Positions 18,618 to 30,599 of a stretch of 64,000 bases of DNA are shown one piece after another (the first letter of the stretch is position 1; every line of letters starts with the position of its first letter). Position numbers and translations under genes: made by a program. The notes below the pieces were generated by a model that saw only the letters and a program-made list of their open reading frames with translations, searched no databases and was not told the origin of the DNA. Source of the DNA: Treponema sp. (lineage in GTDB: Bacteria; Spirochaetota; Spirochaetia; Treponematales; Treponemataceae); contig JAGAZO010000009.1 of the NCBI GenBank assembly GCA_017940005.1, forward strand, positions 124,001 to 188,000, written 5' to 3'.

Positions 18618-19223
18618 CTATTTTTTCAGCCACTCGTCAATAGCTTTTTCTGCCTCGCCCCTTCTATTTTGCGCCGTAGAGCCACGCATTGCAAGCGCCT
18701 CTTTGACCGTCGCCGTTTTGTATTGTCGTCGGAGCGTGTTGTCAGTGCCACTCAATCCGCTGCCTTCGTGCGTGCAAAACGGAATGATTGTCTTGCCATT
18801 CATATCGTGTTTTTCAAGAAACGTATAAACAATCATCGGCATGTCACCCCACCAAATGGGATAGCCTATGTAAATCGTGTCGTAGCTGCTTACATCGATG
18901 TCGCCTTTGTATGCAGGGCGCGCTTTGTCGCGCTGCTCTTGCTTTGCAATATCAGTGCACGCACGATACTGTTTTGGGTACGCTTTTTCCGGCACAATTT
19001 CAAACACATCTGCGCCCGTTTTCGCTGCAATCATCTTGGCAAGAATTGCCGTGTTGCCTTCCGTGATTGTGCCGACAGAATAATTTTCGTCAACACGTGA
19101 AAAATATACGACGAGCGATTTGCCCTTGTCGCCACGTGAACTGCCCGCCGCATTTTGCGCAAAAACGGCAGCGCAGGTGCTTGCGGCAATTACCGCAGCC
19201 ATAAAAAATGATTTTTGATTCAT
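18618..19223 (-). CDS. Exported flavodoxin
   Basis: The 201-residue protein has a Sec signal (MNQKSFFMAAVIAASTCAAVFAQ) and a flavodoxin domain. The FMN phosphate loop is in LVVYFSRVDENYSVGTITEGNTA, and YIGYPIWWGDMPMIVYTFLE is the 50s-loop equivalent. Exported flavodoxins of this kind are common in anaerobes next to AKR and cyclophilin-like genes. AAGGAGT precedes the ATG at the edge of the hairpin repeat cluster. It probably passes electrons in the periplasm; the partner is unknown. Confidence 0.9.
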   Translation of the reverse strand: MNQKSFFMAAVIAASTCAAVFAQNAAGSSRGDKGKSLVVYFSRVDENYSVGTITEGNTAILAKMIAAKTGADVFEIVPEKAYPKQYRACTDIAKQEQRDKARPAYKGDIDVSSYDTIYIGYPIWWGDMPMIVYTFLEKHDMNGKTIIPFCTHEGSGLSGTDNTLRRQYKTATVKEALAMRGSTAQNRRGEAEKAIDEWLKK

Positions 19224-19235
19224 TTATAATACTCC

Positions 19236-19740
19236 TTAAAAATGCATAAGCGAGCAAGTTTCAACTTGCAAGCGCATGCATGTGGTGCGCAGTTGCACGG
19301 AGTGCACGTCAGTCCTCCAGCATGAACGCTGGAGGACTTTCCCCCATTTTTTGCTAACACAAAAAATGGGCACATGTTCCGCAGTTTCAAGAAAACTGCA
19401 CGTTAAAAACGCCGCGCCATTTTAGCGGCGTTTTTAAACTTCTTTAATTTTGAACAGTGAACGATTTTTCAAAATCGGAGCTGTTCAAAACTGCGCGTTC
19501 GCAATGAAATGAGAACGCGCAAATAATAAGCAAGTTTGCGCAAGCAAACTGCATGTTAAAATACACGCGCCATTGTAGCGTGTATTTTAAACACTCCTTA
19601 AAAATGCATAGGTGAGGAAATATCAATTTCCGAACATATGCATTTGGTGCGCGTGAGCGTACACGTACATAAGCGAGTTTTCGCAAGAAAACTCGAAGTT
19701 AAAATGCGCACGCCATTTCAGTGCGCATTTTAAGCGCTCC
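19236..19740. repeat. Cluster of about ten perfect hairpins with covarying stems
   Basis: Three stem-loops at about 19402-19438, 19555-19590 and 19698-19733 share the loop GCCATT(T/G)(T/C)A, but their stems differ and stay perfectly paired: AAAACGCCGC, AAAATACACGC and AAAATGCGCAC with their complements. Each is preceded by an AGTTT-type hairpin (19381-19399, 19530-19550, 19674-19695), two of which have GCAA loops. Further perfect hairpins include GTCCTCCAGC (19309-19334) and CCCATTTTTTG (19343-19370). Two copies of ACTCCTTAAAAATGCATA start modules at about 19231 and 19592. No CDS is seen. Confidence 0.8.
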
Positions 19741-19788
19741 TTGTTTGATGAAAACTCATACTACAATATACAGCAAAGCAGGCAAGCT

Positions 19789-19982: not shown

Positions 19983-20028
19983 GCCACCGCAGTGTGCGCG
20001 CCGTTAACGGCGCGCACACTGCGGTGGC
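19983..20028. repeat. Perfect 46-bp palindrome
   Basis: Both 23-base arms match exactly with no spacer; the centre is GTTAAC. The arms are G+C-rich (GCCACCGCAGTGTGCG at the outer end), unlike the surrounding sequence. It lies inside a non-coding 1-kb gap (19224-20245). Confidence 0.85.
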
Positions 20029-29933: not shown

Positions 29934-30060
29934 ATGCAGTTGCACGAAATGCACGCACACACGTAGATACGCGAGTTTACGGAACAAACCACAATATAGC
30001 TTTAAGTAAACTCGAAGTTAAAAGCACTACACCATTTTAATGACATTTTTTAACATTCAA
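29934..30060. repeat. Diverged copy of the hairpin repeat module
   Basis: GCAGTTGCACGAAATGCACG, GCGAGTTTAC...GTAAACTCG and GAAGTTAAAA...CACCATTTTA match, in the same order, elements of the cluster at 19236-19740. The last stem here is degenerate. The rest of 30061-30599 is A+T-rich with no gene. Confidence 0.6.
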
Positions 30061-30599
30061 TTTATATAGACAGTATAAAATGATATTTCATTTACATTCA
30101 ATGCAGTGGCAAGAACAATTGCTTTGTACAGAGGATTTTATGTATCATTTCATGCGACCTGTGAAGAAACTATTTTATTAGTCGTTCACATGATTAGCAA
30201 ATGAACCTTTGGCTTGTTTTGTAAGAAAATCATTTGATTCGTTGCTTACGCGACAGGCGAATACTCCGATGCCGCTCGAAACTTCGTTGCAAAGCTGCAT
30301 CACAAAAAAAGTATGAAAGCCGACTGTAATACTTTTGGAGAGTTTTTATTCACAGCGTGAATAATTTGTGGAAAAGATTTACTTTAGAAACGAGATATTG
30401 TTGATTTTAAAAAAAGTATTTGCTGTACCATTTCATGATGCGAACGCAAGGAAATTATTTTATTAATTGCTTATGCAAGCAGCATATACTCTGAAGCTGC
30501 TGCATCACGGTTCGTTTATTTTTAAGAAACTACAACTGCCCCTTTGCATGGAGAAAAGTATAATGATACTTATCAATGTATGATATTTCTATGGATAAC

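What the first reader, a model, noticed from the sequence alone, without database searches (positions are those of the whole stretch)
19236..19740. Repeat family with covarying hairpins and constant loops
Three hairpins share the loop GCCATTnnA while their 10-12-bp stems differ in sequence yet remain fully complementary. Each is preceded by an AGTTT-type hairpin, in two cases closed by GCAA. Compensatory change implies selection for structure. A diverged copy lies at 29934-30060. They could be structured RNAs, processing or terminator elements, or a miniature mobile family.
Basis: seen in the sequence. Interest (0 to 1): 0.65.

Follow-up and report, generated by a model that had tools for sequence, protein, structure and literature searches.

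The report
Treponema mobile hairpin repeats, TD-1/TD-2 kin
The three hairpin units are copies of a repeat scattered about 70 times through this Treponema genome; it is related to two known RNA motifs (TD-1 and TD-2), and in Treponema denticola it behaves like a small mobile DNA element that drops into ribosome-binding sites and copies the site, so that the gene behind it should still be translated.

Summary
Window 19231-19742 carries three tandem units of four hairpins each; a diverged unit lies near 29960-30063. The GCC/TATTTYA loop stays constant while its 13-bp stem covaries, also in other species. The genome has about 69 copies; the family is confined almost entirely to Treponemataceae.

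The units are sub-threshold relatives of Rfam TD-1 (minus strand, E 5e-9) and TD-2 (plus strand, E 1e-5). Sister copies in this genome pass Rfam's cut-offs. Rfam lists these as a cis-regulatory RNA and an sRNA; here they prove to be overlapping halves, on opposite strands, of one repeat.

That repeat is an insertion element. Six sites filled here are empty in an ~87%-identical relative, and the window's own site is empty in another relative. In the T. denticola group, 40/40 top copies lie in one orientation directly before a start codon. The Shine-Dalgarno sequence is repeated on both sides (permutation 0/20000), and three empty sites confirm it. Full, H4-only, H4-H3 and H1-only forms exist.

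Shown: family, covariation, insertion polymorphism, site duplication in T. denticola. Inferred: transposition by an enzyme not found. Y1 transposase and integron integrase are absent from this genome. In the window's own species, site preference is not significant.

The parts
19231..19239 (-). left border ACTCCTTAA; on the minus strand TTAAGGAGT, the Shine-Dalgarno sequence of the flavodoxin-like gene 18618-19223(-)
   Evidence: sequence; the orthologous gene in L163 has one such site and no repeat
19233..19440 (+). unit 1 (H1-H2-two extra hairpins-H3-H4)
   Evidence: H3-H4 part R1 58.8 bits, E 3e-11
19242..19281 (+). unit 1 H1, purine-rich internal loop, TTCA loop
   Evidence: sequence
19312..19370 (+). 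two extra hairpins inserted between H2 and H3 of unit 1 (GTCCTCCAGC..GCTGGAGGAC and CCCATTTTTTG..CAAAAAATGGG)
   Evidence: sequence; similar modules recur in L032, L033 and L008/L013
19403..19437 (+). unit 1 H4, loop GCCATTTTA
19441..19593 (+). unit 2 (H1 TTTTGAACAGT type, H2, H3, H4)
   Evidence: R1 85.5 bits; TD-1 on the minus strand 19442-19561 56.6 bits, TD-2 on the plus strand 19498-19596 42.1 bits
19556..19590 (+). unit 2 H4, loop GCCATTGTA
19594..19742 (+). unit 3 (complete unit)
   Evidence: R1 97.2 bits; TD-1 minus 19597-19704 58.7 bits E 5e-9, TD-2 plus 19647-19739 45.8 bits E 1e-5; folding z -7.2 on plus, -5.6 on minus
19699..19733 (+). unit 3 H4, loop GCCATTTCA
19736..19742 (.). 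right border GCTCCTT, second copy of the CTCCTT word that flanks the array on the left
29960..30063 (+). diverged solitary copy (H3-H4; H4 stem imperfect)
   Evidence: R1 55.1 bits, E 2e-10
18618..19223 (-). flavodoxin-like gene (PF12682) directly downstream of the array in TD-1 sense

Best explanation
The array is made of copies of a non-autonomous, modular insertion element of Treponemataceae, homologous to Rfam TD-1 and TD-2, which are overlapping parts of its two strands. One unit is H4-H3-H2-H1, read in TD-1 sense. In the T. denticola group it inserts at a gene's Shine-Dalgarno sequence, in one fixed orientation, and leaves a Shine-Dalgarno word (about 6-9 nt) on both sides, so the downstream gene keeps its ribosome-binding site. 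Copies then multiply in tandem, lose modules or exchange them by recombination. Stems stay complementary because the hairpins are needed in folded form (as single-stranded DNA for mobility, or as RNA in the leader) and/or because template switching keeps repairing the palindromes. Shown: family, homology, covariation, filled/empty sites, site duplication and orientation in T. denticola, copy-number and module changes. Inferred: that a transposase moves it, and what the folded form is for. In the window's species the same element is now dispersed without a demonstrable site preference.
For: About 69 copies in this genome. Covariation inside and between species. TD-1/TD-2 homology in opposite senses; sister copies over the cut-off (L037, L003); T. 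denticola-group copies carry both motifs on opposite strands of one element. Window site empty in L163, whose gene is 92% identical. Sites L003, L005, L010, L011, L021 and L050 empty in G111; conversely, G111 has an array abutting the DUF362 gene where the window has none. T. denticola group: 40/40 copies in gene sense, each followed within 25 nt by a start codon opening an ORF of at least 60 codons, 39 of them at 2-11 nt. Site-duplication permutation 0/20000 for 37 copies, 7/20000 for 27 full ones, 1/20000 for 10 short ones. Empty sites: L273 vs L297 (AAGGAGTTTATAATG against AAGGAGGTA-element-TGGGAGGTATTATG), L279 vs L318 and L285 vs L324. Same site full in G015 (L270) and H4-only in G049 (L336), both flanked by ATATAAGAG or its ATAAGAG core. 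Tandem number changes L063/L076 and L075/L090; H1 swap L085/L087.
Against: No mobilising gene was found: no Y1 transposase in this genome, no gene family recurring next to copies, no integron integrase over cut-off in G000, G104, G111 or G029. In the window's species neither the site duplication (p about 0.05) nor start-codon adjacency (11/39 against 19% in random intergenic positions) is significant. An empty site can also arise by deletion. In T. denticola many full copies match only in the Shine-Dalgarno core.
Confidence: 0.75

Rival explanations
1. The copies are cis-regulatory leader RNAs (TD-1 as filed by Rfam) or sRNAs (TD-2), kept by selection for gene control; the dispersal is gene-family-like duplication.
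For: Rfam class of TD-1 and TD-2; 40/40 T. denticola copies directly upstream of start codons in gene sense; strong folding of both strands; GNRA-type H3 loops on the plus strand.
Against: Copies are mostly not at orthologous genes between species; close relatives lack them at the same gene. Flanking Shine-Dalgarno duplications. In the window's species, orientation and position relative to genes are mixed. Tandem arrays, module loss and module exchange are unlike one regulator.
Confidence: 0.12
2. Transcription terminators or RNA-processing hairpins between genes.
For: H4 in this species has A-tract/T-tract stems (TTTTAAAC) and the scan calls terminator-like sites on the minus strand at H4.
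Against: T. denticola H4 has no U-tract and lies upstream of the start codon with the gene; the terminator scan finds 7 against 3.3 expected; a terminator needs no constant 9-nt loop, H1-H3 modules or site duplication.
Confidence: 0.05
3. Covariation without selection: palindromes corrected by replication template switching (quasipalindrome correction), so stems stay perfect in any hairpin repeat. This rivals the structural-selection part, not the mobility.
For: Stems are nearly perfect even in DNA terms, unusual for RNA selection alone, which tolerates G-U; on the plus strand G-U outnumber A-C mismatches in H4 only 29 to 16 (p about 0.04, counts, test).
Against: Loops (GCC/TATTTYA in H4; NTCA in H1; GNRA in H3) are conserved across species although such correction does not act on loops.
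Confidence: 0.25
4. REP-like elements moved by a RAYT (Y1) transposase.
For: Short dispersed palindromes in intergenic DNA.
Against: No PF01797 hit in G000, G035, G086, G104, G111 or G029, all rich in copies; found in genomes without copies such as G003 and G091.
Confidence: 0.03

Closest known systems
Rfam TD-1 RNA (RF03155), clan CL00124
   Same: Same H3-H2-H1 order on the window's minus strand, ending in a Shine-Dalgarno-like AGGA; E 5e-9 and 1e-8 for two window units
   Different: Window units score 58.7 and 56.6, below the gathering score 64.5. TD-1 is filed as a cis-regulatory RNA and leaves out most of H4; here it is part of an insertion element
Rfam TD-2 RNA (RF03162), clan CL00124
   Same: H2-H3-H4 on the plus strand, E 1e-5
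   Different: 45.8 and 42.1 bits, below 48.7; filed as sRNA; overlaps TD-1 on the other strand of the same repeat
BOX elements of Streptococcus pneumoniae (PMC3049150)
   Same: Modular, tandemly variable, hairpin-rich, dispersed and non-coding, causing target site duplications
   Different: Different modules and host; a fixed Shine-Dalgarno target with orientation is not reported in the passages read
MITEs (miniature inverted-repeat transposable elements)
   Same: Short, non-coding, dispersed, flanked by target duplication; the H4-only form has 10-bp inverted repeats GATAAACAGY..RCTGTTTATC
   Different: No parent transposon found; full form lacks matching outer ends; target is the Shine-Dalgarno site
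REP elements with RAYT transposases
   Same: Intergenic palindromes
   Different: No Y1 transposase in several carrier genomes
Integron attC sites (T. denticola chromosomal integron)
   Same: Hairpin-forming repeats in Treponema
   Different: No cassette ORFs between tandem units, GTT/AAC simple sites the wrong way round, dispersed over the genome, integron integrase absent from several carriers

Membership tests
TD-1 RNA (RF03155) | covariance-model score at or above gathering (64.5 bits) | tested here: not met
   window units 58.7 and 56.6 bits; a sister copy in the same genome, L037, has 68.2. So: homologous, divergent branch
TD-1 RNA (RF03155) | significant full-length match to the model in the right strand and order | tested here: met
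   positions 1-120 of 120, E 5e-9
TD-2 RNA (RF03162) | covariance-model score at or above gathering (48.7 bits) | tested here: not met
   45.8 and 42.1 bits; sister copies L037 52.2 and L003 50.2 pass
TD-1 RNA (RF03155) | acts as a cis-regulatory RNA | not testable with these tools
   no expression data
MITE-like insertion element | short, non-coding, many dispersed copies | tested here: met
   about 69 copies, intergenic, unit about 150 nt
MITE-like insertion element | filled and empty orthologous sites | tested here: met
MITE-like insertion element | target site duplication | tested here: met
   T. denticola group: 0/20000 permutations
MITE-like insertion element | target site duplication in the window's own species | tested here: inconclusive
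   p about 0.05, 16 pairs (two of them from T. socranskii-group loci)
MITE-like insertion element | terminal inverted repeats shared with an autonomous transposon in the same host | tested here: inconclusive
   H4-only form has inverted repeats; no recurring neighbouring gene; unpaired ends in G049 inspected, no autonomous element found
REP/RAYT | Y1 (RAYT) transposase in the host | tested here: not met
Integron attC array | integron integrase in carrier genomes | tested here: not met
   no hit over cut-off in G000, G104, G111, G029
Integron attC array | gene cassettes between sites | tested here: not met
   tandem units about 150 nt apart without a cassette gene
Intrinsic terminator | GC-rich hairpin followed by a U-tract, at gene ends | tested here: inconclusive
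   T-tract within the H4 stem here, absent in T. denticola; positions mixed

The most novel reading that the evidence does not exclude
TD-1/TD-2 are not gene-specific regulators but a mobile hairpin element that recognises the Shine-Dalgarno sequence of genes in one orientation and regenerates it on insertion, so that it can enter leaders of expressed genes without silencing them; its folded single strand (DNA or RNA) is the substrate of an unknown enzyme.
Probability: 0.45. Interest if true: 0.8.

Novelty: new variant of a known kind. Interest (0 to 1): 0.6.

Why it matters
Two Rfam families filed as a regulator and an sRNA turn out to be two faces of one insertion element, so annotations of dozens of genes per Treponema genome as riboregulated would be wrong or incomplete. 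An element that targets ribosome-binding sites and restores them would be a neat way to be harmless while landing in many leaders, and it makes testable how hairpin leaders spread across operons. It also warns that covariation in a repeat family does not by itself show a functional RNA.

Tried and rejected
Rfam at gathering thresholds over the window found nothing; only the permissive scan showed TD-1/TD-2. REP/RAYT: rejected, no Y1 transposase in several carriers. Integron attC: rejected (and anatomy). Autonomous parent: neighbours compared, unpaired ends in G049 inspected; found truncated forms, no parent. Viral contigs: no match to the H3-H4 pattern. A loop-to-linker pseudoknot for the constant H4 loop was considered by eye and dropped, as linker bases do not follow the C/T change in the loop. 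Fixed orientation or start-codon preference in the window's own genome: tested, not found. G-U against A-C asymmetry: too weak to decide RNA against DNA. L275 vs L327 was first taken as an empty site but keeps one copy of the AAAAAGTTTTTATAGGGG border, so it is a scar or pre-existing repeat, not counted. L012 and L052 are shared or half-shared sites, not counted as empty. Paper searches found nothing on TD-1/TD-2; the source paper, as I recall it, is not held.

Full report
The observation. Three H4 hairpins at 19403-19437, 19556-19590 and 19699-19733 have loops GCCATTTTA, GCCATTGTA and GCCATTTCA on fully complementary 13-bp stems. Each sits in a larger unit: H1 (a long hairpin with a purine-rich internal loop and an NTCA loop), H2, H3 (the AGTTT hairpin) and H4, with CTCCTT or CTTT words at the borders. 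Unit 1 carries two extra hairpins. A decayed copy lies at 29960-30063. The loop motif alone is not enriched.

The family. BLAST of unit 3 gives 66 matches in this 2.40-Mb genome. A covariance model of H3-H4 built from 50 copies, own and foreign, gives about 69 hits at E below 1e-3. A pattern scan of one genome per species found the element only in Treponema (T. socranskii, Treponema sp. Marseille-Q4130, several MAGs) and in one contig labelled Clostridia. In Treponemataceae 69 of 145 genomes have hits; elsewhere in the order there are only three single weak ones. No match in viral contigs.

Covariation. In 45 own copies picked by their unpaired features, 93.4% of the pair cells are standard against 78.2% in shuffles; the covariation score is 0.389 against 0.129 with 0 of 500 shuffles reaching it, and slid structures score far less. 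Another 45 copies from other genomes behave the same. The most direct case is one orthologous site: L012 and its G111 counterpart share the element but differ by compensated changes in H4 (C-G against A-T) and in both stems of H1. Loops are conserved between species. Selection on structure is the natural reading; replication template switching could produce the stem part.

Known relatives. At gathering thresholds Rfam is silent on the window. A permissive scan gives TD-1 on the minus strand at 19597-19704 (58.7 bits, E 5e-9) and 19442-19561, and TD-2 on the plus strand at 19647-19739 (45.8 bits, E 1e-5) and 19498-19596. Both are below the cut-offs, but sister copies pass. The genomes of genus group g15 carry the canonical form, up to 136 bits. 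In L251 and L252 TD-1 and TD-2 lie on opposite strands of one element of the same H1-H2-H3-H4 order.

Mobility. The window's site is empty in L163, where the flavodoxin-like gene is 92% identical and has a single site before its ATG; G111 has an array against the DUF362 gene where the window has none. Six further sites filled here (L003, L005, L010, L011, L021, L050) lack the element in G111. Tandem number differs between close genomes (L063/L076, L075/L090), and at one shared site H1 has been swapped for another type (L085/L087).

Target. In G015 and G049 all 40 top-scoring copies lie in TD-1 sense, followed by a start codon opening an ORF of at least 60 codons, 39 of them within 2-11 nt. A Shine-Dalgarno word stands on both sides, and unusual versions match within a copy: ATATAAGAG (L270), ATTGGAGGT (L268), ATTAGAGGT (L252), ATTGGAGGT (L340), ATAGGAGTT (L337). 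The match within copies exceeds permuted pairs: 0/20000 for 37 copies, 7/20000 for the 27 full ones, 1/20000 for 10 short ones. A stricter fixed-register test on the full copies gives 13/5000. Empty sites show the event: AAGGAGTTTATAATG in G032 against AAGGAGGTA-element-TGGGAGGTATTATG in G049; CGGAGGTAATTTATG in G015 against CGGAGGT-element-GGGAGATAAAATTATG in G049; L285/L324 likewise. Short forms (H4 only, H4-H3, H1 only) occupy the same kind of site. L270 and L336 are one site with the full form in one genome and H4 alone in the other.

Limits. In the window's species start-codon adjacency (11/39 against 19% by chance) and site duplication (p about 0.05) are not established, and orientation to genes is mixed. 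No mobilising gene was found: Y1 transposase and integron integrase are absent from several carriers including this genome, and no neighbour recurs. Whether the folded form matters as single-stranded DNA or as leader RNA is open; GNRA-like H3 loops on the plus strand fit either. The gene finder used for contexts is a simple home-made one.

Verdict. A real, family-wide repeat, already glimpsed as Rfam TD-1 and TD-2, best explained as a non-autonomous insertion element; its Shine-Dalgarno targeting is shown in the T. denticola group and only suggested here. It works like a MITE or BOX element; membership in TD-1/TD-2 is by homology, with the window copies under the formal cut-off.

Noticed in passing
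window 19983-20028: Perfect 23-bp inverted repeat without spacer (GCCACCGCAGTGTGCGCGCCGTT and its complement) between the array and the DUF362 gene.
   Followed up: no
L005 about 1455-1480, L010 about 1467, L015 about 1488, L024 about 1396, L051 (all own genome): A second small hairpin repeat, ACCTCGCCGC..GCGAGGTATGG, recurs next to the elements in this genome.
   Followed up: no
window 19312-19370; L032, L033, L008/L013: A two-hairpin module (CTCCAGC..GCTGGAG and CCCATTTTTTG..CAAAAAATGGG) is inserted between H2 and H3, or follows H2, in several units.
   Followed up: partly
L025 about 1690-1911: Tandem repeat of about 23 nt (CACAAACCCCGCACAGTTTGCGA) at a contig end.
   Followed up: no
L070 (JAFTTJ010000016.1): A contig labelled Clostridia carries the element and a gene like one in Treponema sp. 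Marseille-Q4130; probably a Treponema contig binned wrongly.
   Followed up: no
L012 1501-1600: The upstream reading frame appears to run on into the element, so the element may supply the C-terminal tail and stop codon of that protein.
   Followed up: no
L288, L291, L271, L272 (T. denticola group): A sub-type about 66 bases longer; in L288 the extra bases (GATTCGCTATCCGCTTTAGCGGATACGATGAAAAA...) lie inside H1.
   Followed up: partly
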